Origin: Saururus chinensis
Taxonomy: Eukaryota; Streptophyta; Magnoliopsida; Piperales; Saururaceae
Assembly: GCA_035235625.1 (NCBI GenBank)
Contig: CP141146.1
Span: forward strand, 26,034,501 to 26,098,500
Direction: 5' to 3'
DNA: 64,000 nt
Part shown: positions 19,440-58,599 of the stretch, one piece after another
How positions within the stretch are numbered: position 1 is the stretch's first letter
Layout of the letters: each line of letters starts with the position of its first letter
Program-made: the position numbers and the translations under genes
The notes under the pieces: model-generated
The model's database searches: none
What the model was told of the DNA's origin: nothing
Seen by the model: only the letters and a program-made list of their open reading frames with translations

Positions 19440-20305
19440 AATAAAAGAGAGAGAGAGAAGAGAGGGATCGAAGAGAGAGGGGGGAGAGAGTCTAGAGCGA
19501 GGGGAGGTGAGAGAGTGAGGAGAGATGGAGAGAGAAAGGGAAGAGTGAGATAGAGGAGATCGAGAGGGGTGAGGAGAGATGGAGAGAGAAAGGGAAGAGT
19601 GAGATGGAGGAGATCGAGAGGGGTGAGGAGAGAGACGGAAGAGAAGGATGAGGAGAGAGAGAGAGGAGAGAGGAGGGAGATCAGTGAGGAGAGAGAGAGA
19701 GGGAGATCAGTGAGGAGAGAGAGAGAGGGAGATCAGTGAGGAGAGAGAGGAGAGGGAGAGAGAGGGAGGGTAGAGAGAGAGGGGAGATATAGGAGAGAGG
19801 ATGGGAAAGAGAGGGGGGTGAGAGTGAGGAGAGTGAGAATAAAAAATAAATTATTATATTTTAAAAATAATATATTATTATATTTCTAGATTAATTAGTT
19901 TTTAATTATTTAAGATTTTTTATAAATTATTATATTTTAAAAATAAAAAATAAAATAAACACTATTAGCGACGTATAGGAATATATGACGCTAATAGTAA
20001 AGGTATTAGCGACGTATAATATTATACATCTCTAATACCTGCCTTATTAATGAAGTATATATCTATACGTAGCTAATAATATTTATTTTATTTTTTATTT
20101 TTAAAATTAATTTTTAAAAAAAATTATGAAAAAATTGAAATTAGAGGAGAGGGAGAGAGAGGAGAGGGAAAGAGAGGATTTATTTTAAAATATTAATATA
20201 TTTAAAATATAATAGATAATTAAAATATTAAAAAAATTAAAATAAATGCCCCTACTCTCTCCGCTCTCGTCCTCGGAGCCGGCGCATGTGGGAGAGATTG
20301 GAAAG

Positions 20306-20358
<53 letters not shown>

Positions 20359-20490
20359 GAGAGTGTAGAGAGTGTAGAGAGAAATTAAGGAGAGAGAGAA
20401 GGTGAGGAGAGAGAGACAAGAGAGAGATGAGAGAGAGGGTGAGGAGAGAGAAAGAGGGGAGAGAGAGGGTGAGGAGAGAAGGAGGTGAGT
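19440..20490 (+). repeat. GA-rich low-complexity tracts inside the CACTA element
   Basis: Purine-rich tracts (gagagag, gggagatcagtgaggag and similar) occupy about 19446-19840, 20145-20180 and 20290-20490, including a (GA)n run of more than 50 bp near 20307-20355. Several ~40-60 bp units repeat, such as 'gaggagagatggagagagaa'. AT-rich stretches containing further 'agcgacg' repeats separate them. Confidence 0.85.
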
Positions 20491-20696
20491 GAAATATTTA
20501 TTTTTTATTTAAAAATTCATAAAAAATAAATTTATAGCGACACTTTTTATTAAATTGTCGCTAATACGTTAAGTATTAGCTACGCTTTGCAGGAAGCGTT
20601 GTCAATACATATCGTATTAGCGACTCTTTTGTCAAAGAGTCGCTAATACTATATATATTAGCGACACTTAAACTTAATTGTCGCTAAACATAAAAC

Positions 20697-32302: not shown

Positions 32303-32896
32303 TTGGTATCATAAGTCTTTTATTGCAATTCAATCTTACTGAGTATCTTGGCGGACTAGTATCAGAACTCTATATGGAACTCAAGCTTACTGATATTAAG
32401 TCTAAACACACAGTCCTCTTTTATTGCATATCCCATTAATCCCCAAAGTTCTATTTTTGCTGAAATCAATCTTTAATAATCCAGTATAATATCAATATCC
32501 ATAAAATGGAGTCTCCGCTACATAGTAATACCCTGTAAGAGTTCAAATTTACTTCTTGTTCTTTTGGAAAGTAATGTTTAAAGCAATTTTATTAGCGTAA
32601 AGAAGATAAGTAGATGGGCACGACAAGTCAAGCATCACTCAAAAAGGTCACATGAAGATGGATCCAATAGACAGAAAAGAACCACGCCCATGCCCATCTG
32701 ATTTAACCGAAGCAGTCTTCTGCTTGTACTTCAACTTCATCTGCGTGAAAACCCAAAGGTTTAAACATGTCACGTCAGATTTAGGGGATGACACCACGCG
32801 CATCACGATTTGAATATGGTGGAAATTTGCATACTAGACAACTCCTGGGCAAGAAGACATTATGTATTGTTTAATTTCTTTAAACAACTCCCCCAC
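32303..32896. other. 3' flank of CKX up to the MULE
   Basis: The CKX 3' UTR presumably lies in the first few hundred bases; no clear polyadenylation signal was chosen. No gene seen. The last 9 bp (32888-32896, CTCCCCCAC) are the presumed target duplication of the MULE. Confidence 0.5.
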
Positions 32897-32978
32897 GAAA
32901 AGTTTTTAGAAATAGACTCAACAAATGCCGGAATTAGGCAAGGAATTCCAGTTTTGCAAAATCAGACTTAGGCACATG
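32897..32978 (+). repeat. Left terminal inverted repeat of the MULE
   Basis: Pairs with 45903-45990 inverted. The match runs from GAAAAG through 'gttttgcaaaatcagactta', then fades at 'ggcacatgcg'. Confidence 0.9.
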
Positions 32979-33004
32979 CGAAACTCCCACACGTATGGTT
33001 CGAA

Positions 33005-33400
33005 ATGACATATATGCCCTTTCTCTTAATAAACTCCCCTCCTCGATTCCACTTTTGGCTTCTGGGTGATTATAGTCGCCTCTCGCCGGAGATCGCCAAC
33101 CAGATCCGCCTCTCCCTAGCCCCATCTCTCCCTCTGCAATCTCCTCCTCCACCTCTGTGCAGTCATAGCTACTGTCCCGCTACTCTAACTCTCCTCTCCC
33201 GGCCTACTGATAAAGGAATGCGCACCTCGTCTAGGCGATCCTCCTCTCTCATGCCCCCCCTCTCTCCCACTCCTCTGTCCTACCTCTACCGACGCTCACG
33301 GTCCCGTCCTCGGACAGATTTTCATTGCCTTTGCGCCCTTGGTGGTGCAGCTTTCATCCGTTAGCCCTCTGAAGCTTGGGCTTCATAATCGATTAGCTAG
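33005..33400 (+). other. Pyrimidine-rich leader and presumed first exon of the transposase gene
   Basis: A C/T-rich stretch just inside the left TIR that ends in a good splice donor (gctag/gtaagatcc at 33400/33401). A 119-residue open frame here is low complexity (Ser/Pro/Arg) and I do not call it protein coding. The most likely acceptor is the cag before the ATG at 37134, which would make a ~3.7-kb 5' intron. Inference from layout only. Confidence 0.4.
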
Positions 33401-34539
33401 GTAAGATCCCTGATCCCTTATTTTTTGCATAACCAAATAAATATTAAGGTAGTTTCAATAATTTTTCGCTCAGAATGGGTGCTATAATTTTATTTGATAT
33501 GATTGCTTCCACTCAGAAGTATATCCATGAATTATTTACGATATTGTTTAAATGTTTGTACTAGCTGTGATTCCACAACAAATATTTGCATTTGTCTAAC
33601 TAAAAACTGTAAGTTGCTGACAGCAAATAATTTTCTTTATGTTCTGTCAAATAGATACTTATTATATGCTTGTCTAGAAACATTTGCTTTGCTTGTTGTG
33701 TAATTTTTTTTATTTTCTCAGGTTCTGTTTTCTTGAGTTTTAATATTTGTTTTGCTGGCTACATTGGGTTGTGGTAAGAGTTCCTCTGCATTGTGATTTG
33801 TTTGGTCTTTGGCATGGTTGTTTCTTTTAGGTTCTCCTTTATGGCAAATTATCATGTATAATTTTCACTTCTGCATGATATCACTATTACCTTTTAAATT
33901 CTACTTTTTTGTATTGTAGTTCTGTTCATGTAATGATTCCATAATATTTAGTTGCAATCATTGATTATAATTTGCAATCAATGTTTATGGTTGCCAAGTA
34001 GTTCATATTATGGTTGAGTTCATTATCTTGTTGGACTTAATGCTTAATATATGTGTTGATGATTATGTCTCTGCTAAGGACTTCAAATAAGCCTTTGGTG
34101 GTTTTAATTTAAGTGCAAGAGAAAATATTTTCTAAATAGTGGATTTGGAGGGAGGCTGTTTACTAATATTCTCTTTGACAATAGGGAGAATTTTGCCCAA
34201 CTGCTTCCTCTCCCAGCATGTTTTTTGCATCGATTTTTGTATTATTTCTTCATTTTTTTTGTGACAGAGAATAGATTTCTGTATTCATGTTTGGAAAAAA
34301 TTCTTTAGATCTATATGGGTTGGTCACAGAAGTTGTTTTTTTTTCTATTTGAGTGGGGCATATATCTTAATAAATGATAGAGAATAAACAACACATTTTT
34401 ATGAGCTTCTCATTAGTTTTTTTTTATGATGATCAATTCTTCTCATTTGCTTTCGACACACATAATTTCAGGGCACTCGTTTTGGAACTTCTCAGGCTAT
34501 ATAGTTATATAGTTAATTCATTTACTCATGACTATGATG

Positions 34540-35010
34540 TGATCTGATATCTAGCGAGTAGGAGACCATATAACCTAATTTATATATTTAAAATAAAGTT
34601 AACTGATGAATCCTAACTGTTGACTGGTAGATGGTAGGAGGTTTTTCATTTTTCAAAGTACATTGTGTGGTCATTAGATGTGCTCAAGATGGGTTTACAA
34701 GGAAGGTTTGAATGTTGTGATATGCTATATAACGAGTAGTATACCATATGACCTAGTAGATGGAATAATACAAAGTTAACTGATACATCCTAACGGTTGA
34801 CTGGTAGATGGTAAGAGGCCTTTATTTTCCGAAGTACATTGCGAGTTCATTAGATTTGTAATAGTTATGTTATACTATCAAGAGTATGGTGTGATCTAAT
34901 ATTTATTGATGATGATACCGTATAACCTATAATATATGGTTAGAAGATAGTTAACTGATTTTGATTAATTGTTGACTGGTAGTTAACTGATTTTGACTAA
35001 ATCCATCCCT
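34540..35010. repeat. Left subterminal repeat array of the MULE (three ~180-bp units)
   Basis: Three diverged units carry 'gttaactgat....cctaactgttgactggtag' near 34592-34630, 34776-34808 and 34957-34984. The units also share 'accatat.acct' upstream and 'gtacattg.g.gttcattag' downstream. The same core appears in reverse orientation in the right array (43900-45100). Confidence 0.75.
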
Positions 35011-35129
35011 TCACTTCACCGCAGTACACTTATATGTCCACCTCCCCGAGGCAGCGGAGGAGAAGCCAGGGCAGAGACCAAGTAGGTGGAGGCCAACATT
35101 GAGGTGCCAGACAGTTTCACAGTGTATAG

Positions 35130-35475
35130 AGTGATTATGCTAGATCATATGATGGGATGTATTTGGAGAGTAAACATTCTGCACATAATATAGTTTCTTC
35201 ATTAGGCGTTGGTGGTTGCAGGTGGAAGTATAAAACCATAATTCCTATTGACTTGGACAATGAAGATGTTAAACTTAATGTGGGGAACATATAGATATGG
35301 TGTTACACCTTATCTATGTTTCCCACCTTACAATTAACATCTTCATCGTTTGAGTGAATAGTAATTATGGTTTTATACTTCCTCTTGCCACCCCCAACGC
35401 TTAATGATTAAACTTTGTAATAATGTGCATGACTGATTGCTCTCCAATTCAGTTACATGTAATCACGTCGCACAT
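35130..35475. repeat. Long imperfect palindrome (foldback) inside the MULE
   Basis: The left arm runs 'gtgattatgctag...attaggcgttggtgg...agtataaaaccataatt' and the right arm is its approximate inverse, centred near 35305 ('atggtgttacacc'). Each arm is about 150-170 bp. It could fold into one hairpin and may be a foldback MITE inserted in the MULE; no target duplication was identified. Confidence 0.7.
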
Positions 35476-35824
35476 CATAGACTGAATTATATTTTGTATC
35501 TTCAGCCATCTTGGTCACGGTGGATAATGTATACCCAAATGTATTTAATGGTTAGCAAATGCCTTTGTATACAGTTTTGTTGATATTGTACAAGCGAATG
35601 TTTCATAGGGTTAGAACTGCCATAATTTATTGATTATGGTGAGTGGATTGGTGGAAATATAAATAGTTTTTAATGCATTCATATACAATTCCGTTTTTGT
35701 TATAATGATGATGATAAATATTATTAAGAACAATATGAGTTGAAAAGCTACAGCTTCCCATATACATCATTAAAATACACATTGAGAAATGTTATTTTCA
35801 TTGGCTGGGGCAATTACGAAAGCG

Positions 35825-36330
35825 TAATGTTAATATGAGCCTGGGTTCATGCACACTCGCGTCTGGCCCTGCGCTATGGGCAATCAAATATACATCTGGA
35901 TGGGGTATAATACTCATATAACGAACCTCATATAGCCCAGGCACATGCATGTGTGCTTTAGCCTGGGATCATATAAATGGTACCGAAAAGTATAACGTTA
36001 ATAGGAGCCCGGCCTCTCGCGCGTCTATGTGAGCCCGGGCTACACAGCCAATCCGAAGTACATCCAATGGCCCATATTAATAAAAAAAAATGGGTCTGAT
36101 ATAGCCTATTGACATGCATTTGTGCATTAGCCAGGGCACATAGAAATGGTACTCTAAATGAAAAATTAATAGGAGACCGGAAATGCGCGCTTCTACTTGA
36201 TCCCAGGCTCCACGGTCAATAGGATGTACATCCGAATATCCGATGGCCCATAAAACATAAGGTCATTTAAACCCTTAGACTATTATGGGTCATCGGATCT
36301 AAATCGATGTAATTGCCCATAGAGCCCGGG
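35825..36330. repeat. Three tandem units with a 168-bp period
   Basis: 'ttaatatgagcc', 'ttaataggagcc' and 'ttaataggagac' start at 35830, 35998 and 36166, exactly 168 bp apart each time. The units share 'acatgcatgtgtgc.ttagcc.gg' and 'cca.tggcccat'. The third unit is partial or diverges after about 36250. Confidence 0.7.
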
Positions 36331-37133
36331 CTCCTATAAATAGATGCACGTGTGTGCGGGCTACTATAAATTTTTTCCTTAATAATATATGCATTTCGCA
36401 TCATATTTCCATGGTGTATTAAGAGAAACAATAAGAATCGCCACATTTGATAAGTCCACACGCGCGCTGCATATAGCAGACATGGGCCATACCTCATCAT
36501 AAATGTGAAAACCGTGAAAAACCCCGACGCACTTTCTAAACATCCCTCCGAAGGTTTCTTCCCAGGCTAACTGCTGAGGTATTCTCTTACGGTTCCATAT
36601 TTTCATCTCCCTAGTGGCAGATTAGATGACTTAGGTTGGCGGAAGGTGGATGTTGAATAGCAGTCTCTGCATATGGACGCATGGAGGAAGACTCGGATAG
36701 TCATGTTTCTACCTGTTGGTGTCCCTACCGGAACAGTGGTAATGTTGGATGTGGAGAATATGTTAATGTTTGTACTTTTGGATGAACTACTTCTTACCTA
36801 ATATGCTCTGCAGATGAAACAACAATGACAACTAATTTTTCAGTGTGGAGATGGTGGGTGAAAGCTTTAACTGATCCGTCTCAACTGATAACTGTTAGTA
36901 GCATTTAACATAGGTAACTCGCGGGTACACAAACTCTTGTCTTGTGTATGTACTTACATGGGTCGGTGTGCCGCATGTACAGTTGTAATACATGAAGTTA
37001 AGTTTGAGGTTAAGAATGAAATTGATGCCTGTTCACACAAAATTGTTTCAATTTTAAGCACGAATATCATTGACTGATAAGTATCAACTGATAACTGCCA
37101 GAGCCTAACTGACATTACATATGGTGTATTCAG

Positions 37134-40100
37134 ATGGATACAGATGAGCAGCCTCTGTTATGTGTGTGGGGTGTGGAGTGGGATGCAAGTCGACACAAGT
37201 ATGATTGCTCCAATGCCAAGTTGGATGTCATATTTGTTAGAGGCTCATTGACGTATGAATCCTTGGTGCCTATGGTTTACAAATTAATAGGATGTTGTAG
37301 CAGGGAATACTCTTTAAAGATGAGTTTTACATATCCTTTGGCAATCCCCATGGACGTACCTCCAACGAAAATATGTGATACTAGGACTCTTCAGTGTTTA
37401 CTACGATATGCCAAGACCAAGCACAATGGTCTACCATTGATAATAACCAAAGTGCGACATGTACATGTGTTCCATGAATGTGAGCCGAATATTGATGTAT
37501 CCGAATCAAAGATGAACGAGTCGATTATTTTCAATGATGCCAAAGAGCATAGTATACCTGCAAATGAAGTGAAGCATACGGTGGAAGTGAAGGAAGTTGG
37601 AGTGAGGCATGGCATTGAAACCAATGATAATTTGGCTAGTGCTGCTTCAGATATGGACATATTGTACATGAACACAATGGATTTCAGTGACGACCGGGAA
37701 GTAGATGACTTACTACGTGAGGCCAGGGAGTTGGAGGCAAAGAAACATCCTCCTGTTTACGTAAATTTGCAATTCGATTCTGATGAAGATCTAGTAGATG
37801 TCCCCATTGAAAGGCTTGAAGTGGATACGGTGAACATCTCCAATGTTGAGGAGAATAATGCTAACTCAAATGAGGGTAATGATGCCGGAGGAGCAAATGA
37901 TGAAGTTAGTGGGCCAAACACGATGTATAACATAGACGAAGAAGATGTCATCTACAATGGAAGGGATACGCAGGAGCAGCTTGAGGAAGACATTGACATG
38001 GCTGAAAGAAAGTGGTAAGAAGTATACAATCATTATTATTATCTGTTTTGTTTGCAAATTTATGCACGTGTAGTAATGGTTTAGTGGTTTTAAATGCAGT
38101 GATACTGAAGTACCAACAATAGCTAATGTAGTAATGTCACTCATAAATGAAGGAGATGGTGGTGGGAGGTGGAAAGCACCACAATTAAGTAGCAATTTTG
38201 GGAAAATTTCGGCACCAAAACAACTTCAAAGGTCATTTCATGTGCTTACGTAGTTAGTTAACTGATTATGCCTAACTTATAACTATTTGTCTCGTTCTAA
38301 TACCTATATAAATATATTCATTCAGCAGACTGGATGCGAAGGTGTGTGTGAACGAAAAGCACAACATGGATGTGGAGGTTGATTTGTATGACTATGGCAA
38401 AGATCCGAATGTGCTTCTACTTGGGCAAGAGTTTATGGATAAGGACTCTCTGAAGCTACATGTACACACAAGTATGCTATGCATAATAACTTTGAGTTCA
38501 AGGTAAAATATTCAAATAAATCTCGATTCACAGTTGTGTGCAATGTGTCGGGATGTCCATGGAGGTTACATGCTGCGATAAGTAATGCGTGTCGTATCTT
38601 CAAAGTGAAAGCTATGAACAATGTTCATACATGTGGGAAACCAATATTTGGAGGAGATCATAAACAAGCAAAAACGGGTATTATTGCTGACTCAGTAGTG
38701 AAATGACTTAGGAAACGTGTTGCTTATACTCCCAAGGATATTCAAGTTGATGTCGATTTGGAATATGGAGTTAAGATGAATTATTCGAAGGCATATAGGT
38801 CGAAGGTTGCGGCTTTTAACAAGTTAAGAGGCTCCTACGAGTCATCGTATGCTAAGTTGGCTACATACTTAGATGAGTTGGAGAAGGCAAATCCGGGAAC
38901 CTCAACTGCTATCCAGTACAACTCATCGGATCTGACATTCAAGTGATGCTTTGTTTCCTTTGGTTCAGCCATGGAGAACTTCAAGAGGTACATGCAACGT
39001 GTTATATGTATAGATGGCACATTCTTGAAAGGAAGGTACAAAGGGACTTTGTTTGTCATATCTACATTGGATAGTGAGAACCATATATACCCAATTGCTT
39101 GTGCTATCGGAGAAGGAGAGAATAATGATGCATGGGGATGGGTCCTTGCACATTTGGAAACCCGACTTGGTTACTTGGAGTGCCTAGTGATACTTTCTGA
39201 TCAGCATAGATCAATCACATCACAAGTAGCTCAAATGTTTCCATATGCCACACATGGATATTGTGCATTTCACATATCTCAAAACATGTTTGCACATTTC
39301 AAAGACAGAGGTTTGAACAGTAACTTCTTCAGGGCGGCTAAAGTATTTAGGTAGGAGACATATATGGAAGAAATGACCATCATTGAGGAGAAAAACCCCG
39401 AGGCCTACAAGTGGTTAACTGGAATTGATAAGTCACGCTGGGTTAATGCTTACTTTCCATCGCCAGGTATAATATAGTCACATCCAACCCATGCGAAGTC
39501 TTCAATGGAATGCTTAGTGAGTAGCGACGCTTCCCCATTGTCATGATCATTGAGGCCATCCTTTTGAAGGCTCAAGAGATGTGGTACAAGCATGGATTGG
39601 AGGCAAAACAATGGAAGGGATACTTGACTAAATATGCCGAAGCAAAGATTCAGAAGTGCAATGAAGCAACTAGAGGGATGATTTGTTATCCCATAAGTAG
39701 CCATGAGGTCTTAACTAGGTCCGAAAGAGGGGATGATCAAGTTGACCTTATCGCAAAGACTTGTACATGTGGAAAGTTTCAACAAATGGAGTTGCCATGT
39801 GAACATGCGTTGGCAGCATGTGGCCACTGAAGACTAAATTATGTTGACTATTACTCCCTGTTCTACACAACGGAAACTTATAGGCAAATCTATAACAATG
39901 GAGTTTATCCAGTACTCGAACATAAAAGATGGGAGACTCCTGAAGATGTGAAGAGCCTTAAGTTGAGGCCTCCAAAGGATAAGGCACGACTGGGCCGGAT
40001 AAAAAAGAAGAGAATTCTATCTCGAGGTGAAGAAAAATGGAGAGTACAATGTCGTACGTGCAAATAATATGGTCACTATAGCAATACTTGTACCGCGGTA

Positions 40101-40424
40101 ATTGGAGAGAACCCGGTCGGGGGACATACTCCTCATCCATCCATAGCTACACCCGCTTCATCTCATGGCCAGCTCCCATCACCACCTCATGCTAACCAAA
40201 AGTTGTCAACATCTAAACAATTCCCACAGGTAGTAGATAAGTTGGGTGGTAAGGAAATCAGGAAGATGCGTCATCCATGTCCAATCCAGTCGAAGATCAG
40301 CCATCTAACCCCAAAGGGGAAGAGAAAGAAGAAAATGAGACAAGTGGTTGAGCTCAGTGCATGTGCGCTTGAGGACAAATTGCGCAAGAGACCAATCGCA
40401 GTGGTCAAAGTCGCACCATTGTAG
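37134..40424 (+). pseudogene. MURA-type MULE transposase, decayed
   Basis: Cuts and pastes MULEs by a DDE mechanism. Parts in order: an N-terminal PB1-like domain (37134-about 37470; WGVEWDASRHKYDC), an acidic linker, the DNA-binding region (38471-38706; FEFKVKYSNKSRFTVVC, GCPWRLHA), the transposase core (38971-39354; CIDGTFLKGRYKGTLF, ILSDQHRSI, GYCAFHISQNM), a SWIM zinc finger (39760-39830; CTCGKFQQMELPCEHA), then a CCHC knuckle near 40045-40095 (CRTCK, YGHYSNTC) and a basic tail. Introns are likely at about 38014-38098 and 38233-38330. A frameshift lies near 38470-38480, and in-frame stops occur near 38703, 38944, 39352, 39475, 39828 and 40066. Several fit C-to-T change (CGA to TGA, CAG to TAG, CAA to TAA). 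The start ATG sits right behind a splice acceptor. Confidence 0.9.
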
Positions 40425-41732
40425 TTTGCTTGACGACATATTTTGGAAAACTTTTATTTCTGATTGTGGCACAATATGTTGGCAATTCAACCATAAATTC
40501 CATGTGCAGAAACTTCATCTCTCAACGTGTTTTTTTGTCTAAATTAATATAAGGCAATACTTCAAGTACCAGTTTATAATAGCAATCTCCTTATTTATCA
40601 CCAGGCAAATTGGTCAATAAAATGTACATCGTCAATCCCAGGTTCCCGAGGTGATTGTGAAGCCCTGAAGCTTCAAGCATATGAATGCTGCCATGCTATT
40701 TTGCACTTTTTTTTAAAAAAATTCATGCTCTTTGCCTTGATATAGCTTCCTCAATTGCAACGAGTCCAAGTCTACTAAAAGTGTCTAATGTACATGCACA
40801 AATTTTAGTGGGCCAATTTAGTGTACAAGTAGAACTGCATTTCCATTTTATGATCTTTTACTAGCATAGCTTGTGAGATGTATGAACAATCAAACAACAT
40901 TTTAATACATCCTCTTCTTCACAGATTGCAAATGATATTTTACCTGATTAAGAAAAGAGCAAAAAAACAGAGGCAACAAGACAGTAATATATATTCTGGT
41001 CTCCATCATGATTCATGACTGAGACATGCCTCCCACTCCATATTGTTTAATCTAGAATTAGGTGGCCAGTGGCCTATTACAAAATCTCACTAATACCTTT
41101 CAGAGACGACCAACCACCGAAACCAAATGCACATAATCTCTTCGTCCTGCAACACCTAATTGACTACAGTATTTGTTTTAATATTTTAATCAAGTGATGC
41201 CTCCATATTTGAGTTCTGTCCCAAAGGGATTTCATAGGCAAATCCCCTGTTATCTGAACGAATACATATTTTAGCAATGACACATCTGTATCGGCTAAAC
41301 GAAATTATGAACGTATTGATTCTTATGAATCACAAATTCTTAACTACTCAACGGTCTTCATTACTGCACATGCACATTTTGGACCATATCTAACCAATCA
41401 TGAACAATATCTCATTCATATCGTACCATCAAATACCGCAATGCCACCTGTCCATTATCATCTATAGTTAACCGATGTGTTATCAGAACAACGTCATACA
41501 AAGAATATTGATTTCTCATCAATCAAATTCAGCCAAAAACTATACAAAACCATCAAATTCTATTAGTCTTGTAACAACACAAATAACTTCAAGATTCACC
41601 TTAAACATTAATCAATTATGGTACTCCTCTATAAAGTATTCATACAAACCATCAGTGAAACACAAACTGAATCACATAGTCAAGGACAAACACTATCAAG
41701 TTAATCCACATCTACTGTCAAGAAAATGGTCA
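40425..41732. other. Spacer between the two MULE genes
   Basis: AT-rich, no recognised protein; presumably the two 3' UTRs. A 187-residue plus-strand frame (41475-42038) overlaps the protease gene in antisense and is a by-product. Confidence 0.5.
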
Positions 41733-43683
41733 TCATATGGAATTTTGCAGAATTTGGTATGCAACCCTATGTCTCATGAAGTGAATGTCCTCTCTGGTAA
41801 AGCGAAAGTGGTACCCATGCGACAGGTACCACATATAAATGCATACACAGACACCGCAATCATTGTTGTTGATTTGTTGTGGCTATTCGGTTATCTCTCT
41901 CACCGGGAGGCGCAAGGTAGTAGCTCTTGTATATCCCAATTTCAACAAAACTATTGGCAAAACATGTCTAAGAATCCCCAATTTCATGTAGTATTGATCT
42001 ACCTCAACCACAGAGTAATATGGGTCCATGATGTATAGGACATCCTTCCTCAAGTCTAGAAGAATGAGAGTCCAATGGTTACTGTTTACATGAAGAGGGA
42101 AGTGGTGGACCTCATATTCCCAAAAGTCTTTCTCATTCACCTTCATCAACTTCATCATATTGGTTGGAACTTCTAGCCATGCGTCTGCAACAGCGGCTCT
42201 GGAGACAGTTGCATCCTTTTCCTTCATTGATGCGTAAATGCTGAGGAGGGTAGATGCATCCATCCTCATAAGCTCCTGTGGAATTATCAACAGACGTCAG
42301 TCAAGTAGTTAGCCGTTGTCAGTTAAATATGATATTAAAAACAAAAGAAGGCCTACCATAAAATATACAAGATGGAAGGCTTGCTTATTAGTTGGGTTCC
42401 CAAGGGCCTTCTTCCGCAATGCCAGCACATACGCATCAATATGCTATATCAGATGAATCGAACATCGAATTAGTATAGTATATAATAGGGATGAAAATAT
42501 GAACCACTATTATTATGTACAACTAAAATTTGCACATACATTATCCCAAAGCCACCTATGCTCAGAAAATTCTTCAGCCCTATAGCGGATTGGACAATCT
42601 CCTCATCAGACTCAGCTTGTGTCAACTCTAAGCGCCTGTGCACCAACACCTAAAAGACAAAAAAATATATTCATTATTAGTCATCATATATGTCGTTTGC
42701 AAATTATAAGTCATTCTAAGTCGACAAACGACAATATATTACCTTCTCTCCGCCAAAAATTGCTTTGTCAATTGCATCATAACTGGGCTTCTTATAGTTG
42801 GCCCAATTCAGCATTCTAGGATAAACATCTTGTACTCTTCTCACACATAAGTCCCTAAGTAGAGGAATCCTTTCCATTGCCCAAACCTTCATATTCAAAC
42901 CATGGACATAAATGTCATAATTGCATATGCAACATAGTACATTAAAACCTCAATCAAAATAACAAAAAAAAAACGTACCAACAGTGCCGGTACAAATCCA
43001 TGCACAATGTAAATGGTTTTGGTAAGAGACTTCCTTGCTTCCTCCAAGCCATGGAGGGTGTCCCAATATGTAATATTACCCCATGGATATGAATAGAATT
43101 CCTCCACATCATCAACCAACAAAAAAAACCTCCGGTCCACCTTATGATCCCACCCTCTGCCCACAATGAAAGAAGCCAACACTAGTATGTGGGCCAACTT
43201 CACCGCGTCTTCATCACTTTTGCTTATGATGATTTTTTGGTATATCTGCTCCTTCGTAATGTGAAGCTTCTCTTTGCCGAACACCCTACAAAGTAGGGAG
43301 TCCTTTCTAAAAACTTTTGGCATTGTTGGAAGGGATGGGAGCACATCAGCCATACGCAGACCGGTTACTTGGGCAAATTCTATGTGTAACAACTTCATCG
43401 AATAGGCTTCCGTCACTTGAAACCTATACTCTCCTTGATGCATTTTTATGATGTGGTGCAAGGCTTGAAGTGGGAACATGAACTTCTCTATGTCTAGCTG
43501 CATGTATTTGCCGAAACATGATCTTTTGAATAGTGTTGCTTGTCTTCTATGCTTATTTAAATGCTCTTTGAGCCTCCGTATGTAAGAATATGTTGATTTG
43601 GGTTGAGGGTCGCCCAAATGGGCTCTACCCTTATCACTTTCAACTGGCTTGAAGATCATTTCCACATTACTTGGTAGCTTCAC
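41733..43683 (-). pseudogene. DUF1985 plus Ulp1-like (C48) cysteine protease gene in the MULE
   Basis: Ulp1-family enzymes cleave SUMO or similar ubiquitin-like tags; the role of transposon-borne copies is unknown. On the minus strand the first clear exon (43683 to about 42980) encodes a DUF1985 domain (KRSCFGKYMQLDIEKFMF, EFAQVTGLRM, FIVGRGWDHKVDRRFFLLVDD). The next exon, about 42898-42742, has the linker VWAMERIPLLRD, YPRMLNWANYKKPSYD. A short one is at about 42650-42545. The last (42290-41733) is the protease: HHFPLHVNSNHWTLILLDL with catalytic His, LYIMDPY with Asp, then PQQINNNDCGVCVC with the oxyanion Gln and catalytic Cys (codon at 41856-41858), ending at the TGA at 41733. One in-frame TAG (41883-41885) falls just before the Gln-Cys block. 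An acceptor precedes 43683, so a leader exon near the right TIR is likely. Confidence 0.85.
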
Positions 43684-43899
43684 CCTGTAATGTTTAACCG
43701 TTCACTTAAATGGTCATGCACTTGGTATCTTCAAGCTGACCATGGGTCATAATTTGGCATGTAACCCACACGCACAACATACATATCGGCAAATATTTAA
43801 GTGAGCAACACCTATTTTGAATCACACAATCAAATTTTGTAGTATATCAAACAAATGCACCAAACACACAATATCAGTTTGACAATATAACTTATGTAC

Positions 43900-45100
43900 A
43901 CTGTCCAAATAATCAAACACACAATATCAGTTAGGCCCTATCAGTTAACATTGTTTTAAGTAGGTGTACTTGCTTAAAGGGTCTACCCTTGATTTTCATA
44001 ATATCACATATCACAGAGGATGGTAAAAAATGGACACTAGTTAGCAAACAATTTACATATGTAGCCTACAGTCGACACAATGCACTTTGTACACCAATAA
44101 AAGATGCCTAAAGACTAACAGTCAACAGTTAGGGTCTATCAGTTAACATTGTTTTAAGCAGGTGTACTTGCTTAAAGGGTCTATCCTTGATTTTCATAAT
44201 ATCACATATCACAGAGGAAGGTAAAAAATGGACACTAGTTAGCAAACAATTTACATATATAGCCTACAGCCGACACAATGCACTTTGTACACCAATAAAA
44301 GATGCCTAAAGACTAATAGTCAACAGTTAGGCCCTATCAGTTAACATTGTTTTAAGCAGGTGTACTTGCTTATAGGGTCTACCCTTGATTTTCATAATAT
44401 CACATATCACATTGGAAGGGTAAAAAAAGGCCACTATTGAGCAAACAATTTACAGATATAGCCTATAGCCGTAGACAATGCAATTTGCATAGAAATAAAA
44501 TATGACTAAAGACTACCAGTCAACCGTTAGGACCTATCAGTTAAGCTTGTTTTAAGCATGTGTACTTGCTTAAATGGTCTACCCTTGATTTTCATCATAT
44601 CACATATCACAGAGAATAGTAAAAAAAGGAAACTGTTGAGCAAACAAATTGCAAATGTAGCCTAGCAACTACATTTTGACCCTTCCTTAATTTTGTCACT
44701 TTGTTTTACATTCCATAAAAGTCATCCATGTTAGCTAAGCCCCAAACACACATTATACAATCGAGAACATGAAAGACCCACACTCGTATGAATCTACATA
44801 AATATAGACCTAACTATATCAAGTCTAAAGCCAGCACAATGTACTTTGCACGTCAATAAAAGATGCCTAAATCCCACCAATCAACAGTTAGGCCCTATCA
44901 GTTAACCTTGTTCTAAGCATGTGTCCTTTGTTTAAATGGTCTACCATTCACTAAGCACCAAATACACAATCTACATTTGACAAGATCAATCTACCCATGT
45001 ATATACCAAACTGTATAGAGTTTATTGACCACACAATTTATTTTCAAGACTAAACTATAATGTACCAGTCAACAGTAAGGCCATATCAGTTAAATTTGTT
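43900..45100. repeat. Right subterminal repeat array of the MULE (~198-bp units)
   Basis: The core 'gtcaacagttaggccctatc' then 'agttaacattgtttt' recurs with its GTTAGG at about 43930, 44128, 44326, 44526, 44887 and a diverged copy at 45076. The first four are spaced 198, 198 and 200 bp and share nearly the whole unit ('aggtgtacttgcttaaag', 'catatcacagagga', 'acacaatgcactttgtac'). Inverted, the core equals that of the left array. Confidence 0.9.
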
Positions 45101-45378
45101 TGTGGCATACAATAATGCTTCTAACAGAGCACGGCTCCAACTTAACTAATCCGCTATATTTTTCTTCCTTATCCTACATACAATATTTTGTTGCATCAGA
45201 GATTTCCTTTTTCAAAATTTATCATGAGATCACATACTTCAAATATTTAAATCAAATTTATCTTACGACATCACATACACTACTCATAGCAGTACATATG
45301 TCCAATTTACACACCTATTATGAATTTCATCACACAATCTCAATAAATTTCAAACCAATTTCAATTAACCATACATAG

Positions 45379-45902
45379 TTGGAGGATCTCACTTTGCCAT
45401 TTATGTCGTCTTCTATTGATCAATGGATGGGGAGATTGGTCAGACGGCCAAGTGAAGAGGCAGAATGTAGATTAGGGCAAAACATCGAAATGCGGGATGC
45501 GGCCGGTTGGAAGAGAGGGATGGTGGGAATGGAGCTTAGCAAAATGTCTTCGGAGGGGGGAAAGGTAGCCGCAATGTATTTCTCCGGTTGTCAAATGATT
45601 GCCGCAGTGAGATTGCCGGCGTGGATAGTGAAGGATGGAACAAAATGGGAACTTTCTCTGCAATACCGGAGGAGAAAAAAAATGTGGGACTGGATGACCG
45701 ATAGCGGAGAAGAGGAAGGTGAAGGATGGGATATAAAAGGCTGGAATGCGATTCTCGTAACGGTGGCGAGCGGTCGCAATCGCCGGAGGGAAAACTGAAA
45801 TCTGAATTTTGGGTTGCACCCGGTGAAGTAGGGTCGAGTCTATTCATTTCCATTGCTTAAGGGTATTCTCGGCAATTCAAGCGCGCATTTGGGTAAGTGG
45901 AA
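45379..45902 (-). other. Presumed leader of the protease gene next to the right TIR
   Basis: On the minus strand this is pyrimidine-rich, with overlapping low-complexity frames (45853-45536, 45819-45472), mirroring the leader at 33005-33400. A donor-like 'aaagtgag' on the minus strand near 45395 could start an intron across the repeat array. I do not call a protein. The 139-residue plus-strand frame (45379-45798) is the antisense by-product. Confidence 0.35.
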
Positions 45903-45990
45903 CGTGCATAAGTCTAATTTTGCAAAACTGGAATTCCTTGCCTATTTTTGTAATTCCGGCATTTGTTAAGTCTATTTCTAAAAAATTTTC
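45903..45990 (-). repeat. Right terminal inverted repeat of the MULE
   Basis: Inverted partner of 32897-32978. It is followed by CTCCCCTAT (45991-45999), the presumed 9-bp target duplication. Confidence 0.9.
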
Positions 45991-46305
45991 CTCCCCTATG
46001 CATACAACCAAACCATACAAGGAAAAAACTAGTTAGAGATGTATTGAGCTAGAGCTCTAGCTCCCTGGCCGTTTAGATAATGGTTCTGACCATGATCTGA
46101 TGTCCAGGGAGCCAGAGCTTTCACTACGGCTCTAGCTACACATCTCACCGACCGGGTCCAACTCCCTCCATTATTCCTTTTTATTGCATTGTTCTCTCTT
46201 TCTTACCATGCCAGGGTTTTACACCATGACCCTGCAGCTTCTCCTCCCCCACCTCCTCCTTGCAGGAACTTCACGTGCGTCTGGGTCGCCATTGGTTTGG
46301 ACATG

Positions 46306-51174: not shown

Positions 51175-54100
51175 TGGTACACCCTTGCACTCGCTCGATG
51201 CAAGCCGAACCCGGTGCAAGGGACGATCGAAGCACATGGCGGCGATGAATTAATAAACTGCGGAAGACTTGACCCCTCTAGCAAGTGAATTACACATATA
51301 GAGTTGTGTACCTTTAAATCTTTGTGCAAGATAAATAAGAAAAAGTATAAAGGACTTTAAATCAGAAACAATCCTCAATGTCTCAATCCACAACATAGAA
51401 TACTGAGCCGACAAACATGGCTCAGATCATAAAGTCATAAATAGGTCTAAAACCACAAGGGTTACAAGAGTTTGGAAGAAGATCAACCATATATAAAGTT
51501 CTAACATCATAACAGAGTAAATCAGAAAATATAGCAAAGTATCGAGGCATCCACACCTACTCCAAAGCACTCCCCAACCGTTCCTCGTACAAAGGATCTT
51601 GATAGACTGCATGTCGCACTATGCAGCCCCAAAACTAAAAACACATAAAGTGGGATGAGTATAAACTCAATAAGGGTTTGAATACGGAAATGATAAATCA
51701 GAAAATAACCATGACATATCATTATCAGATCTACATGTCATATAATATCCCATTTCTGATTACTTTCCTTACCATAATCATACTTGCTCATAAGTAATTA
51801 TCCTACATTCCAATAACTTAAACATACAATTCATAGCATGAATAATCACATTATAACATAAACATCCATCCTGCATGAAGGGTGTCTCAAGCATACCATA
51901 TATATCCATGTATACCCATTCTCCTTTATAACATTCATCCTCCATGACACATGTCTCCAACACAATCTTATCATGCATATCCATAACCACAATCAACTTG
52001 CATGAGAAGTGTTTCTACCACACAATCATATAATGCATATTTATCACATTTAACCTTCATGAGAAGCGTCCCTACCACACAATCATATCATACATAATTA
52101 TTCTCATCCACAAGCATTCATCCTACATGAGATGTGCCTCTAACACACTGACCACAATCAACAACGGTGAATGTTTCATAAAACAGAGAGAATAAACCTA
52201 CTCCTCAAGGCAGAAGCCCTCAAGCAACCCCTGCCCATCAAGACTAAACTCTCAAGCAATCTTGTTTGTCAAGACCAAAGTCCCAAGCAACAATACATGG
52301 TAAGCCAGTGCACTCGAATAAACCAACCTAGATTCTCAAGGTGCAGATAATCTCAATAGTTTAGTCTCCTATTATCATTGCTGCCCTTCTCAACTCAAGG
52401 AGGAAAACCCATCCTCGAGGGATGTAAAACCCCATCCTTTTGGACATAAAACCCTGTCATTCTAGACGTAAAACAGAATCGATAGGCCTCCGATCAATTT
52501 GGTAAGTAATATCACACAATTGGATCCAATCGATCAACACAGATAATCTCAATAAAATCTCATTTGTAACATCTCATGATACATACAACAATCACCATAA
52601 TTGCCCTCACATGTGTGTGTACATGGTAGAAACATTCAATTTTAAGTATATGGACATGCATTATAAACATCCCAGTAACATTCGACACACATGCTATGTA
52701 ACATTTAATCATGGCTCCTTACTTAAATCATGAGTGAAAACCATTGAAAAACACAATTCAAATAAAGTACAATCTTATGCTAGACTTAAGTAGATATATT
52801 CATTACCACACTTAAATCTAGACATGACACCATCATTCACTCATAGTTTAATCATGATATGTAAAGGCATACAAATCCATTCTTATACTATAACCTTGCT
52901 GGATTCACATTTAAAGTATGAAGAATCAATCCACATGGATTCAAGATAATACATCATAACATGCTTAACCAAATAACATGTAATTCACATAATATATAAA
53001 CATTCTTCATAGCTTCCACATCAAAGTCATGCGCTTCCAATAGTTCTTCATAGCATAAATTTCTCATCATAATCAAAAGAAATGGTATTTTACAGGAAAA
53101 ATATAAAAATGAACAAAATATCAAAAATCACCAAATTGCTGTGTTGGTGTTCGATCAACCTACATGGCCGTTCAATAGCCAAAACATAAGTTTTGGTTTG
53201 TCTTCTTCCTTTCGAATTCAAAACCGAAAGTACACACACACACATAGATATATATATATATATATATATTCAAATCTTACTCCCAAACTTCATAATAATG
53301 AAATCCAAGTTTAGGAAAGAGTAAATCTAGCCATTTATAACTAAAAATACCAAGAAATCGCAAAAAGATTAAGCTTTTCTAAATCTGCCATTAAAGCTCA
53401 ACTCCATGAAAATGCACATAAAACTCCACTACATTTCAAATTTGAAATCACATACCTATTTCATACGAAATCCCTTATCTCCAGTGAGTTTCTTGACTTG
53501 AAATCAATGCTCCAACTCCTTCAAAATCCTACCCATAATAGGGTTTTGTTAATACTTGTATAAATACGATTAAAAATGCCTAAATCACTAGAAAACTTGT
53601 AGATCTAGGGTTTATTGTGTCACGCCCCGGTGCCCACCTGACCCAAGCCAAACCCGGTCCATGGGCCGGTCGAAGCACACGGGGGCAACTAAATTGCATC
53701 GTGGAAGTCTTTAACCCCTTATTTGGGTATTAACATATACACGGAGTAGCCCACCTTTAGTCCTTTGAGTAAGAGAAATAAGGTAGAATAAAAGTGGATA
53801 ATAATTTTCAAATGAATCCTCACTCTCAACCCACATACATAACTTCCTGAGCTTACACATGGCTCGAAATCAGAAAATCTGAGACGAGTCTAAAAGCATA
53901 AGATATACACGAGTCTGAAACATAAACCACCACACAAGATGTTCAATAATCATTATAGCATAAATCAGAAGACAAACAATGTCAGGAGGCGTCCACACCT
54001 ACTCCCATGCATATCCCGATCGTCCCTCGTATAGGGAATCCTAATTAACTACATGTAGCACCATGCAACCCCAAAACAAAACACAGAAAGAGGGGTGAGT

Positions 54101-57058
54101 AAAACTCAGTAAGGTATGAAATACAATAACATTAATAAAAAAACAACCACGACACATCAACATGGTATTTCAAATTAATATTTTACATAATATCCTCATT
54201 TCTGATTAATCCCCTTACAATACCCCTAATTCTATAAGTAATTATCCCGCATACGAGTATCTCATACATGCTAATCATGACATAAATAATCACATCATGG
54301 CATAATATTTATCCCACATAATAAGTGATTTTTACACAATCACATCCATAATCATACACATCAAGCCATTTTCCTTCATAACATTCAACCTGCATAACAC
54401 GTGTCTTCAACATGTAATCACATAATGCGTATTCATATCATTCATTCATAGATCATCACCATGTACGATAAAAGTCTCAATCACATCATACTAAATCATG
54501 TATAATTCTCAATTATCCCTACACAACCTGTGTAATCTGAGCATAATATTATCTCATACACATGCATCATCAACAAATTGTGAATGTCTTCATCATTGAG
54601 AAAATACAATCATATCACCCGCTCTAGACAATCAACGAAGAAAGATCTGAATCCCACATAGGGAACCTATGGAGTTAGCCCATTATGGATATAGTCTAAA
54701 TTCCACGAAGGAAATCTAGAGTGGTCGGGGTAGTTAGCCCCTAAGTATGCTCGCCCTAGACATTCCTGGCAAAGGATGTCTGAATCTCACACAGAGAACC
54801 TAGAGTAGGTGTGTTTGCCTTGGACATCTCTTGCGGCAGGGAGAGTCAGAATTTCCACACAAGGAACCTAGAACATGTGATAGTCGATGCACGAAGGTGT
54901 ACCACTCTGGATTCTCAGGGCCCAGATGACTTATCTCAAGAAATCTCAACCACAAGACGTGTACACAACATATCTCCATTCAACTCAACACATACTTAGA
55001 TCGACTCAACCTGGGGAGTATCCATGTTCTACACAGGAACTCAAATTGAAATCATGTCCTTTTGGACCAACCAATTTCCGATAAGCCCACGATCAATTAA
55101 TCCAGCATGCAATCTCACATTGCATATAATTGATCAACCATGGCCAAACTCGGTAAAGTCTCAATCGGGAATCCGTTTCATTATGCATGTAACATGGTAC
55201 ATACGTGGGCAATGCATACATTAACCTAATAATGAATCGTGCTCCCATCAGCCCCTCATGCATCATTTATAATCATAATGTCAAACATCATCATATTCAT
55301 CCCCCACATTTGTGTGTGTGCATGGTAGAACATTCAACTCTAAGCATATAAACATGCATTGTAAATAACTCATTATCACACTGCACATGCTCTTTAACAT
55401 TTAATCATGGTTCCTAATTGAAATCATGAGTGAAAACCATCGAAAACCATCAATTAAATCAAGTGTAACTTAATGCTAAACCTATGCAAACATATTCACA
55501 CTACACTTGAATCTAGTCATGGCACCATCAATCACCCATAATTTAATCTTATTATATATAGACATTCCAATTCATTCTCATGCTATAATCTTACTAGAAT
55601 CATGCTTAAAACATAAGGAATCATTTAAACATAGATTCAAGATAAACAATCCTAACATGTGTAGTCAACAACATGCAATTTCACATAAGACTTAAATACT
55701 CTTTATAATTTCCAACATCAATAACATTCCATTCCAGTGGCTCATTCTAGCTCAAATTACTCCACATGAACATTGAAAATGGTATTTAAGAGTAAAAACA
55801 TAAAAAGAAGCAAAATAGCCAAAACTTGCAATACAGTCGTTCGATCGGACTGAATGGCCATTTGAACACCAAAACGTATTTTTCCTGGTTCATCTTCCCT
55901 ACTTCAAAAACGAAAACCAAAACTTTTTATAAATCATTCAAACTCCCAAATCCTTACTCCCAAACATCACCATAATCAATTCCATGCTTAATAAACATCA
56001 AATCTAACTATTACTAGACATAAACCATAAGAAATTTCATCAAAATTAAACCTTTCACAAATCACCATTAAAGCTCATAAGCATAGAACCCATTTCAAAA
56101 CTTCAACAAAACACGAATCTAATCTCCTTTCTCTTTTAGGAAAATGGGGGATTAGGTTCCTAAGCTCTAGGTCTCAACCCTTTTCCAATTGGGAAACTAG
56201 CTGTGCCATTCCTTTTATAATAAAAGGTGGGGTAAACATAATTAACTAGTGGGGTACAAATATGATTTTATACTAAAACTGGTAAACCTTGCTTATTTGA
56301 AACCCAATTTGATGTCTAAATTTTTTGAAATAATTACCCATGATCTTAGGTTAATGTTAGGGTCATTTAGGGCTAATAACCCCAAATTTGCACGTGGGGC
56401 CCATGGTGGGTCCCTCCTCTAACTTTTTGGAAAAAATTAGTAAAAATTCTAGAAAAATTTCAAATGACTTAAATTAACTTAAAAACCTAAAATGTAAAGA
56501 AATTTTTGGTTAAAACTTTTTTAACCACTTTTACTTCAAAAATAGTCTAAAACAGATGAGAATTGGCATTAAACCACACAAAAGCAATTAAATAGAATAA
56601 GTAAACCGGTTCAAGTTCAGGGATCTTACATATTGAGTTCAAAATCGAAATTCCTTTCATTAAGGGTTTGAAATAGAGATTAAAATCAATAGCTTTATGG
56701 GTAGAAATTAACATTAAACCTTAGCAAAAGAAGAGGTTTAGAAAGTTTAGGAGAAACCCTTAGAAATTAGTGAAAGATTAAGTTAATCTTTACCTTAATC
56801 ACATTTCCTTCTTTAGAAATTAATTTCAAAATTTCAAAAAAATTGAAATTGAAATAGTAAACAAATCCAAAAATTTCAAAAAAATTGAAATTGACTTATC
56901 TTAAGATAAAAACCATCAAAGTAAAGAAAAATTGATTAAAACCATTGTTAACCACCTTTAATTAGAAAATAAATCATAACCAACCAAATTAACATTAAAC
57001 CACACAATAACAATTAAATAAAATTAATCAAACCGGTTTAGGATCTAAGGATCTTACA
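51175..57058 (-). mobile_element. Solo LTR (family X) inserted in the copia element, itself interrupted
   Basis: Starts 'tggtacacccttgc' and ends 'ggatcttaca'. It is similar throughout to the solo LTR it contains ('aagccgaacccggt', 'gatcgaagcacatgg', 'gtctcaatagttt' and so on). AAGT lies on both sides (51171-51174 and 57059-57062), a plausible aged target duplication. Without the nested LTR at 53618-56630 its length would be about 2.87 kb. It separates the integrase and reverse transcriptase regions of the copia element. No internal coding, hence solo. Probably gypsy-type (inference). Confidence 0.82.
53618..56630 (-). mobile_element. Complete solo LTR (family X), 3013 bp, youngest layer of the nest
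   Basis: Starts TGTCACGCCCCGG and ends 'cagggatcttaca'. It is flanked by a perfect 5-bp duplication TATTG (53613-53617 and 56631-56635). On the minus strand it reads TGTAAGATCC...GGGGCGTGACA, a common plant gypsy-type LTR pattern. There is no internal region. Insertion order is therefore copia first, then the 51175-57058 LTR, then this one. Confidence 0.9.
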
Positions 57059-57229: not shown

Positions 57230-58468
57230 CTATTTCATCTTCCCCTTTTGTAGATCTTGATGGTGCTTATAAAGCTTTGCCTCATGAACCACAACATTTA
57301 TGCTCTGGATCACCTTCTTATGGATCGGATTCCACAATTGATAACCATAAGCATCTCCACCATAACCAACAAAGTAGCATTTGTTGGACTTTGAATCCAA
57401 CTTGCCTCTATGTTCTGCATCAACATGCACATAAGCAGCACAATCGAAAACTCGTAAGTGATCAATCTTTACCTCTTTCTTTGACCATGCCTCTTCAGAA
57501 ATGCCTCCATCTAGGGAATAACATAGAGACTTGTTGATCAAATACACTGCAGTGTCAATAGCATAACTCTAGAATAAAAGCGGAAGGCCATAGTGTAGCC
57601 ACATACTGCATGCCTTCTCCATGATGGTTCTGTTCATCAGCTCAACAACACCATTATGTTTGGGTTCTTTAGGAGTAGTGTGCAATCTGCAAATGCCATG
57701 CTTATCACAGTAGGATTTGAAATCCCTACTACAATACTCGCCTCCATTGTCTGACTTCAAACACTTCAATTTTAACCTTGTCTCATTCTCAACAAGTGTT
57801 TTCCATTGCATAAAGATAGAAAATACATTAGATTTATTCTTAACAAAGAAAACCCATAACTTGCAAGGAGCATCATCAATAAAAGTAATGAAGTAAGACG
57901 CACCTCCAAGGGATGGAACCTGGGATGGTCCCTAAACATCTGTGTGTACAAGCTCAAGCAGCTCAGTCCTGTGCACTAAGGTAGCTCTGAAAAATAAATC
58001 TTTGTGTTGCTTGCCCATGACACAATCCTCACAGAAATCTAGATCAACACATTTCAAACTGGATAACTTCCCCTTAGCCTGTAACATCTTCATCCCTTTT
58101 TCTGACATATGCCCAAGACAACAATGCTACAAACTCACATCGACAGCATTAGAGGCCACTCCAATAGAGTGCTTATGACAACTGGATGTCTCATATAATG
58201 TCCCAATTTTCTTACCATTAGCCACTACCATGACACCTTTACTCAATTTCCAACTGTCACTCATAAAGTGAGTAGTAACACCACAAGTATATAATTGACC
58301 AACAAAAATAATATTCTTTGTCAAACGAGGCACAAGACGAACATTTTTCAACACAAGAACAACATTATCATCAATCAACAAACGTATGTCACCCTTGCTT
58401 ATGATTTCACAAGCTTGGTCATTACCCAAATAGACATTGCCCAAATCACTAGCCACAAAATTATGCAT
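57230..58468 (-). mobile_element. Copia protease-to-integrase region
   Basis: The minus strand shows the pre-integrase region (58468-58127; LVPRLTKNIIFVGQLYTCG), a zinc-binding FCEDCVMGKQH near 58010-58045, the integrase core (57811-57569; LKCLKSDNGGEYCSRDFKSY, HTTPKEPKHNGVVELMNRTI) and its C-terminal part (57547-57230; VKIDHLRVFDCAAYVHV, NKCYFVGYGGDAYGYQLW). It is a fossil with a few breaks. Confidence 0.88.
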
Positions 58469-58599
58469 TGAATCTTTTTTAGAAGTATCATGAAATGAGG
58501 CACCATGATCAATAATCTAAGCACCATATTTACTTTCCATAGACAATTACATGCATTCATATTCTGCAACATTAACTACGTTTTTGTCATGATTTTGTG

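What the first reader, a model, noticed from the sequence alone, without database searches (positions are those of the whole stretch)
32897..45990. 13-kb MULE with transposase and a DUF1985/Ulp1 protease gene, bounded by TIRs and a 9-bp duplication
Both ends and both genes can be seen in one piece, and the protease keeps its His, Asp, Gln and Cys residues. Ulp1-carrying MULEs are known (Kaonashi type); many lack clear TIRs, while this one has good ~85-bp TIRs. It sits 594 bp downstream of an intact CKX gene.
Basis: partly seen in the sequence, partly recalled or inferred. Interest (0 to 1): 0.75.

Follow-up and report, generated by a model that had tools for sequence, protein, structure and literature searches.

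The report
Decayed plant Mutator transposon with SUMO-type protease
This is most likely a worn-out jumping gene of a plant that carries a broken transposase gene, a SUMO-protease-like gene with one early stop, and two mirror-image sets of a short repeated DNA motif that may be the binding sites of its own anti-silencing protein.

Summary
The element is real. Inverted ends lie at 32897-32975 and 45904-45990 (75 of 79 aligned bases identical, one 8-bp indel), flanked by a 9-bp repeat that matches at 7 of 9 bases. Between them are a Mutator-type transposase gene (+ strand) and a DUF1985-Ulp1 gene (- strand). The transposase frame meets six stops and two frameshifts. The protease gene has a clean five-exon frame and its His, Asp, Gln and Cys, but a TAG lies between Asp and Gln. 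Ulp1-carrying TIR-MULEs are already described in grapevine and melon (PMC2528002, passages), so the kind is known. This resembles the repeated target motifs of Arabidopsis VANC anti-silencing proteins, which carry DUF1985 (PMC5735166, passages). I infer that the DUF1985-Ulp1 protein bound these motifs to lift silencing. No plant genome could be searched.

The parts
32888..32896 (.). left target-site duplication CTCCCCCAC
   Evidence: 7/9 match to the right flank in the register set by the TIR ends
32897..32975 (+). left TIR (79 bp)
   Evidence: 75/79 identical to right TIR, 8-bp indel; one BLAST pair, no other copy in the window at E up to 1e-3
34598..34991 (+). left motif array: three 33-bp copies (34598, 34775, 34950) plus an extra TTAACTGAT at 34983
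35163..35447 (.). 285-nt near-perfect foldback, possibly a nested MITE or an internal hairpin
   Evidence: -82.2 kcal/mol, z -17.27
36866..36898 (+). motif copy upstream of the transposase gene
37069..37101 (+). motif copy ending 32 bp before the ATG of the transposase exon 1 model
37134..38014 (+). transposase exon 1 model, open (no Pfam match above cut-off)
38257..38289 (+). motif copy inside transposase intron 1 of the model (38015-38325)
38326..40424 (+). rest of the transposase gene: DBD_Tnp_Mut, MULE and SWIM domains, CCHC-like stretch below cut-off; six stops (38704, 38944, 39352, 39522, 39828, 40065) and two changes of frame (~38466-38480, ~39455-39475)
41733..42275 (-). protease exon 5 model: Peptidase_C48/Ulp1 catalytic core with His, Asp, Gln and Cys
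41883..41885 (-). in-frame TAG between catalytic Asp and Gln/Cys (codon 473 of the model)
42357..42443 (-). protease exon 4 model
   Evidence: GT-AG, phase 0
42536..42649 (-). protease exon 3 model
   Evidence: GT-AG, phase 0
42743..42886 (-). protease exon 2 model
   Evidence: GT-AG, phase 0
42979..43659 (-). protease exon 1 model from the first ATG of the open frame, with DUF1985 (E 3.5e-11)
43917..45094 (-). right motif array: six copies (43917, 44115, 44313, 44513, 44874, 45062) upstream of the protease gene; contains a 198-bp tandem repeat at 43928-44664
45904..45990 (-). right TIR (87 bp)
45991..45999 (.). right target-site duplication CTCCCCTAT

Best explanation
An old, very probably immobile copy of a TIR-bearing Mutator-like element of a flowering plant. 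Shown: TIRs, an imperfect 9-bp TSD, a MuDR-type transposase gene whose frame is interrupted many times, a DUF1985-Ulp1 gene in the opposite direction with one nonsense codon in a five-exon model, and 12 copies of a triple-box motif (YTRACTG-like boxes at offsets 1, 15 and 22 of a 33-bp core) arranged as mirror images in non-coding parts. Inferred: when active, the transposase acted on the TIRs; the DUF1985-Ulp1 protein was a VANC/KIU-like anti-silencing factor that bound the motif arrays in front of both genes and in transposase intron 1, and so lifted host silencing of its own family. The Ulp1 part may have removed SUMO from silencing proteins there. Identity as a decayed MULE is about 0.95 likely; the anti-silencing role with these motifs as targets about 0.4. 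The confidence given is a blend of the two.
For: TIRs and TSD; transposase domains with stops and changes of frame; DUF1985 and C48 in one spliced frame, all four introns GT-AG and phase 0; catalytic residues against SENP2, across the stop. Motif: 12 copies inside, 0 outside, 0 in 5 mononucleotide shuffles; exact TTAACTGAT 12 of 12 inside the element, dinucleotide-shuffle mean 0.13, maximum 1 in 60 shuffles; copies in register are 72% identical left against right in the core and 25-34% in the flanks (all 12 copies). Arabidopsis VANC proteins carry DUF1985, bind short motifs found in tandem repeats in terminal, intergenic and intronic non-coding DNA, and remove methylation (PMC5735166, passages). 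The review PMC13317346 says, citing Sasaki et al. 2022, that Ulp1-carrying VANC genes (KIU) do the same for their own elements (passages).
Against: No binding, expression or methylation data. The motif differs from the VANC21 and VANC6 motifs given in PMC5735166. DUF287, the second domain shown for Arabidopsis VANC, was not found at E up to 1. The copies were collected with a consensus, which by itself raises core identity; the right copies are partly one tandem duplication (core 85%, flanks 81%). The signal is weaker for looser forms: TTAACTGAT with one mismatch occurs 21 times inside and 15 outside (shuffle mean 6.0, maximum 11 in 60), and some of those inside lie off the arrays or on the other strand; TAACTG alone 25 inside, 13 outside. 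TAACTG also looks like a MYB site (recalled), so a host factor could be the binder. No second copy of the element was seen. An intron of 69 or 81 bp ending exactly at the TAG is formally possible in frame, so the nonsense codon is likely rather than certain.
Confidence: 0.5

Rival explanations
1. The motif arrays are promoter modules: host MYB-type (TAACTG) and WRKY-type (TTGAC) factors bind them and drive the transposase and protease genes, with no role for DUF1985.
For: All 12 copies point in the direction of transcription of the gene beside them and lie upstream of its modelled ATG (65-2536 bp for the transposase, 290-1435 bp for the protease) or in its first intron. The boxes resemble MYB and W-box cores (recalled, not tested).
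Against: Several copies are 1-2.5 kb upstream, far for a core promoter; the three boxes keep their spacing as a unit, which scattered host-factor sites need not do.
Confidence: 0.3
2. The arrays are subterminal transposase-binding sites, as in En/Spm or Ac elements (recalled), used to assemble the transposition complex.
For: Inverted orientation at the two sides of one element.
Against: The exact copies nearest the ends lie 1702 bp and 897 bp inside, others 3970 and 5361 bp inside, while the TIRs of about 80 bp are the obvious binding sites.
Confidence: 0.12
3. The arrays are remnants of once much longer TIRs (over 2 kb) that decayed or were patchily gene-converted, without any function.
For: Left and right arrays are inverted and at broadly similar distances from the ends (1702-2086 and 897-2042 bp for the exact 9-mer, leaving out the two inner left copies).
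Against: BLAST shows no similarity between the two sides from the TIRs to the arrays, and in 3 left by 5 right copies the flanks are at the random level (71.4% against 73.1% for 30 random gapped pairs). Three left copies (36866, 37069, 38257) have no right partner at the same distance.
Confidence: 0.12
4. The Ulp1 gene is a passively captured host gene fragment (Pack-MULE style) without a role for the element. (This concerns the gene, not the arrays, so its odds do not add to those above.)
For: The grapevine authors suggest repeated Ulp1 transduplication by MULEs, or frequent loss (PMC2528002, passages); this copy has a stop codon.
Against: It reads as a whole five-exon gene with a clean frame, fused to DUF1985, and has one stop and no change of frame, against six and two in the transposase; the difference was not tested formally.
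Confidence: 0.15

Closest known systems
Ulp1-carrying TIR-MULEs of grapevine (starred Mutavine families with TIRs: Mutavine-3, -4, -18) and of melon
   Same: MuDR-type transposase, Ulp1 region downstream of it in either orientation, TIRs; Mutavine-4 is listed with a 9-bp TSD and TIRs of 141-144 bp (PMC2528002, passages)
   Different: sequences not compared here; motif arrays are not mentioned in the passages I saw
Arabidopsis KI-MULE (Kaonashi) / KIU-carrying VANDAL
   Same: transposase plus an Ulp1 gene in reverse orientation; KIU genes are described as Ulp1-carrying VANC genes (passages)
   Different: KI-MULEs are described as non-TIR, and KIU as one of three coding genes; here there are TIRs and two recognised genes
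VANDAL21/VANDAL6 with VANC anti-silencing
   Same: DUF1985 protein; short motifs repeated in non-coding parts, introns included (PMC5735166, passages)
   Different: VANC21 motif YAGTATTAY and VANC6 motifs AGTTGTCC/AGTTGTAC differ from the motif here; no DUF287 hit here; a Ulp1 domain is present here
VANDAL group 45 of the MULE phylogeny in PMC6446971
   Same: SWIM and CCHC zinc motifs, 9-bp TSD, TIRs of 46-174 bp in some members, PMD and/or DUF in half the members (table passage)
   Different: no tree could be built here; the CCHC match is below the Pfam cut-off

Membership tests
Mutator-like element (MULE) | MuDR-type transposase domains (DBD_Tnp_Mut, MULE, SWIM) | tested here: met
   all three above Pfam cut-offs
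Mutator-like element (MULE) | terminal inverted repeats (most families) | tested here: met
Mutator-like element (MULE) | 9-bp target-site duplication | tested here: inconclusive
   7 of 9 bases match; 441 of 200,000 random pairs do as well
Autonomous MULE | intact transposase frame | tested here: not met
   six stops, two changes of frame; no above-cut-off profile spans a stop, see full report
KI-MULE (Kaonashi) | Ulp1 gene opposite to the transposase | tested here: met
KI-MULE (Kaonashi) | non-TIR ends | tested here: not met
   TIRs of 79 and 87 bp
KI-MULE (Kaonashi) | clusters with Arabidopsis KI elements in trees | not testable with these tools
   no plant protein or genome collection on hand
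VANC/KIU anti-silencing gene | DUF1985 | tested here: met
   E 3.5e-11, 1e-10 in the spliced model
VANC/KIU anti-silencing gene | DUF287 (shown with DUF1985 in Arabidopsis VANC) | tested here: not met
   no hit at E up to 1
VANC/KIU anti-silencing gene | short motif repeated in the element's own non-coding DNA | tested here: met
   12 copies inside, none outside; weaker for looser forms
VANC/KIU anti-silencing gene | binds that motif and lowers methylation | not testable with these tools
   needs experiments
Active Ulp1/SENP (C48) protease | His, Asp, Gln and Cys in one open frame | tested here: not met
   all four residues present, but a TAG separates His/Asp from Gln/Cys; escape by an extra intron is unlikely but not excluded

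The most novel reading that the evidence does not exclude
A TIR-bearing MULE family carries a complete VANC/KIU-like anti-silencing module: a DUF1985-Ulp1 protein plus its own target, a three-box heptad motif in mirror arrays in front of both genes. The truncated protein of this copy would still hold the whole DUF1985 match and might still bind.
Probability: 0.3. Interest if true: 0.5.

Novelty: new member of a known kind. Interest (0 to 1): 0.3.

Why it matters
The element itself is an ordinary, decayed copy of a known kind. The mirror motif arrays next to a DUF1985-Ulp1 gene give a concrete and cheap test of whether sequence-specific anti-silencing, worked out in Arabidopsis VANDALs, also exists in TIR-bearing MULEs, and of what the Ulp1 part adds.

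Tried and rejected
The idea that the protease TAG lies in an intron: the only AG between the TAG and the Cys codon is that of the TAG itself; in-frame GT donors within the 420 bp scanned give introns of 21, 69, 81, 120 bp and longer. A 21-bp intron is too short for a plant (recalled); the longer ones would remove residues that lie between Asp and PQQ, where the unspliced spacing (48 positions) is close to that of SENP2 (45, counted by me on the alignment). Judged unlikely, not excluded. The idea that the transposase stops lie in introns: no above-cut-off Pfam match spans a stop; two matches below cut-off do (ZSWIM1-3_RNaseH-like across 38944, zf-CCHC across 40065). That the sequence around all six stops is ordinary MULE transposase is my reading from a recalled consensus. 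The frame upstream of the first frameshift gave no Pfam match alone; that frameshift rests on the DBD match starting only at profile position 21 of 67 and on reading. Structure prediction of the DUF1985 exon without an alignment gave mean pLDDT 44.7 and is not used. No solved structure matches that exon at E up to 10. Scans of viral contigs with the DUF1985 exon, the MULE exon and the motif found no relative; genome contigs was not scanned. No Rfam match at gathering score and no tRNA in the window. A claim that the stops come from C-to-T change was dropped, because each stop codon can arise that way. The number printed for 12 motif copies all falling inside the element is not used, because tandem copies are not independent.
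Full report
What was checked. The window looks like plant nuclear DNA by its content (a cytokinin dehydrogenase gene, copia- and Ty3-type retroelement pieces). Its species is not known and no genome is held for it. I tested the ends, the genes and the non-coding parts of 32897-45990.

Ends. The first 79 bp and the last 87 bp form inverted repeats: 75 of 79 aligned bases are identical and one side has 8 extra bases. The alignment scores 119; the best of 200 shuffles scores 30 and the best of 971 random segment pairs scores 61. BLAST of the window against itself at E up to 1e-3 shows no further copy of the ends. In the register fixed by the TIR tips the flanks read CTCCCCCAC and CTCCCCTAT, 7 of 9 identical. 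Of 200,000 random 9-mer pairs 441 match as well; lengths 8, 10 and 11 give 4, 3 and 4 matches. So the insertion is well supported, but the 9-bp duplication is imperfect.

Transposase. Stretches on the + strand match DBD_Tnp_Mut (E 1.2e-11), MULE (1.8e-21) and SWIM (1.5e-8), all above Pfam cut-offs. The gene meets stops at 38704, 38944, 39352, 39522, 39828 and 40065 and changes frame twice, near 38466-38480 and 39455-39475. The modelled exon 1 (37134-38014) is open. Limits: no above-cut-off profile spans one of the stops; two weaker matches do (38944 and 40065), and the piece of frame before the first frameshift gives no Pfam match by itself. That all six stops sit in ordinary MULE transposase sequence is my reading against a recalled consensus. 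A pseudogene is by far the simplest account, since escape would need several extra introns.

DUF1985-Ulp1 gene. On the - strand five exons (43659 to 41733) join without a frameshift; all four introns are GT-AG, phase 0 and 81-93 bp. The joined protein of 522 positions matches DUF1985 (E 1e-10) and Peptidase_C48 (1.2e-15), and weakly the plant mobile domain (E 0.01, below cut-off). Against SENP2 the catalytic His, Asp, Gln and Cys all align, and the alignment runs across the stop; which residues are catalytic is recalled. Codon 473 is TAG, immediately before the PQQ that leads to the Cys. An extra intron ending at the TAG (69 or 81 bp among the in-frame options) is possible on paper but would shorten the stretch between Asp and Gln well below that of SENP2. 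A product would thus end before Gln and Cys but would hold all of the DUF1985 match.

Motif arrays. BLAST without any motif already showed inverted similarity between 34.5-35.0 kb and 43.9-45.1 kb. A 33-bp core with three YTRACTG-like boxes at offsets 1, 15 and 22 occurs 12 times with up to 9 mismatches, all inside the element, none in the remaining 50.9 kb and none in five mononucleotide shuffles. Six copies are on + (34598, 34775, 34950, 36866, 37069, 38257) and six on - (45062, 44874, 44513, 44313, 44115, 43917). The exact 9-mer TTAACTGAT occurs 12 times, all inside, six on + in the left part and six on - in the right part; dinucleotide shuffles of the element give a mean of 0.13 and a maximum of 1 in 60. 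With one mismatch it occurs 21 times inside and 15 outside (shuffle mean 6.0, maximum 11), so the looser form is less telling. The three-box pattern gives 11 inside and 0 outside with up to 3 mismatches, 12 and 0 with up to 4, 15 and 3 with up to 5. Every 33-bp copy points in the reading direction of the gene beside it; 11 lie upstream of the modelled ATG (65-2536 bp and 290-1435 bp) and one in transposase intron 1. In gapped alignments of 8 of the 12 copies, the core is 84% identical left against right while the flanks stand at 71%, the level of 30 random gapped pairs (73%); among the three left copies core 91%, flanks 72%; among the five right copies core and flanks hardly differ (85% and 81%), as expected for an array with a 198-bp tandem repeat.

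Reading. Arabidopsis VANC proteins carry DUF1985 (and DUF287), bind short motifs that sit in tandem repeats in non-coding parts of their own VANDAL family, introns included, and remove DNA methylation (PMC5735166, passages; PMC10398659, passages). A 2026 review states, citing Sasaki et al. 2022, that Ulp1-carrying VANC genes (KIU) do the same for KIU-carrying elements (PMC13317346, passages; the cited paper is not held). The set seen here, DUF1985 plus Ulp1 plus a private repeated motif in the non-coding parts, fits that system. The binding itself is inferred, and host-factor promoter sites are the main rival.

Known or new. Ulp1-carrying MULEs with and without TIRs, and with the Ulp1 gene in either orientation, are described for grapevine, and TIR-MULEs with Ulp1 for melon (PMC2528002, passages). 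KI-MULEs are described as non-TIR there, so this element is not filed as a KI-MULE. In the MULE phylogeny paper the VANDAL group includes members with TIRs of 46-174 bp, 9-bp TSDs, SWIM and CCHC motifs, and PMD and/or DUF in half of them (PMC6446971, table passage); the resemblance is a lead only, since no tree was built. In eight literature searches (listings capped, titles and starts of abstracts seen) no listed paper was recognisably about motif arrays in Ulp1-carrying TIR-MULEs; most subscription papers are outside that library, and I did not read any paper whole.

Verdict. The finding is a real but decayed member of a known kind.

Noticed in passing
35163-35447: A 285-nt near-perfect hairpin (-82.2 kcal/mol, z -17.27) inside the element, with no clear target-site duplication by eye; possibly a nested foldback MITE or a small-RNA precursor.
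   Followed up: partly
43928-44664: A 198-bp unit repeated 3.7 times in tandem, 89% matches, with motif copies every 198-200 bp.
   Followed up: yes
32976-33400 and 45379-45856: G+C-richer stretches near the TIRs (54% and 49%, against 39% for the element), open in several frames, with no Pfam match in the frames tried; captured host DNA is possible.
   Followed up: partly
57572-59275 (-): Copia-type gag, Pol beta-barrel and integrase pieces.
   Followed up: no
62129-63972 (+): Ty3-type gag, aspartic protease and reverse transcriptase pieces.
   Followed up: no
2309-4350 and 51201-57058: Long direct repeats, about 70-83% identical, between and within these two stretches; nature not determined.
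   Followed up: no
19446-20492: A cluster of short direct repeats and a palindrome at 19900-20140, mostly about 70-80% identical.
   Followed up: no
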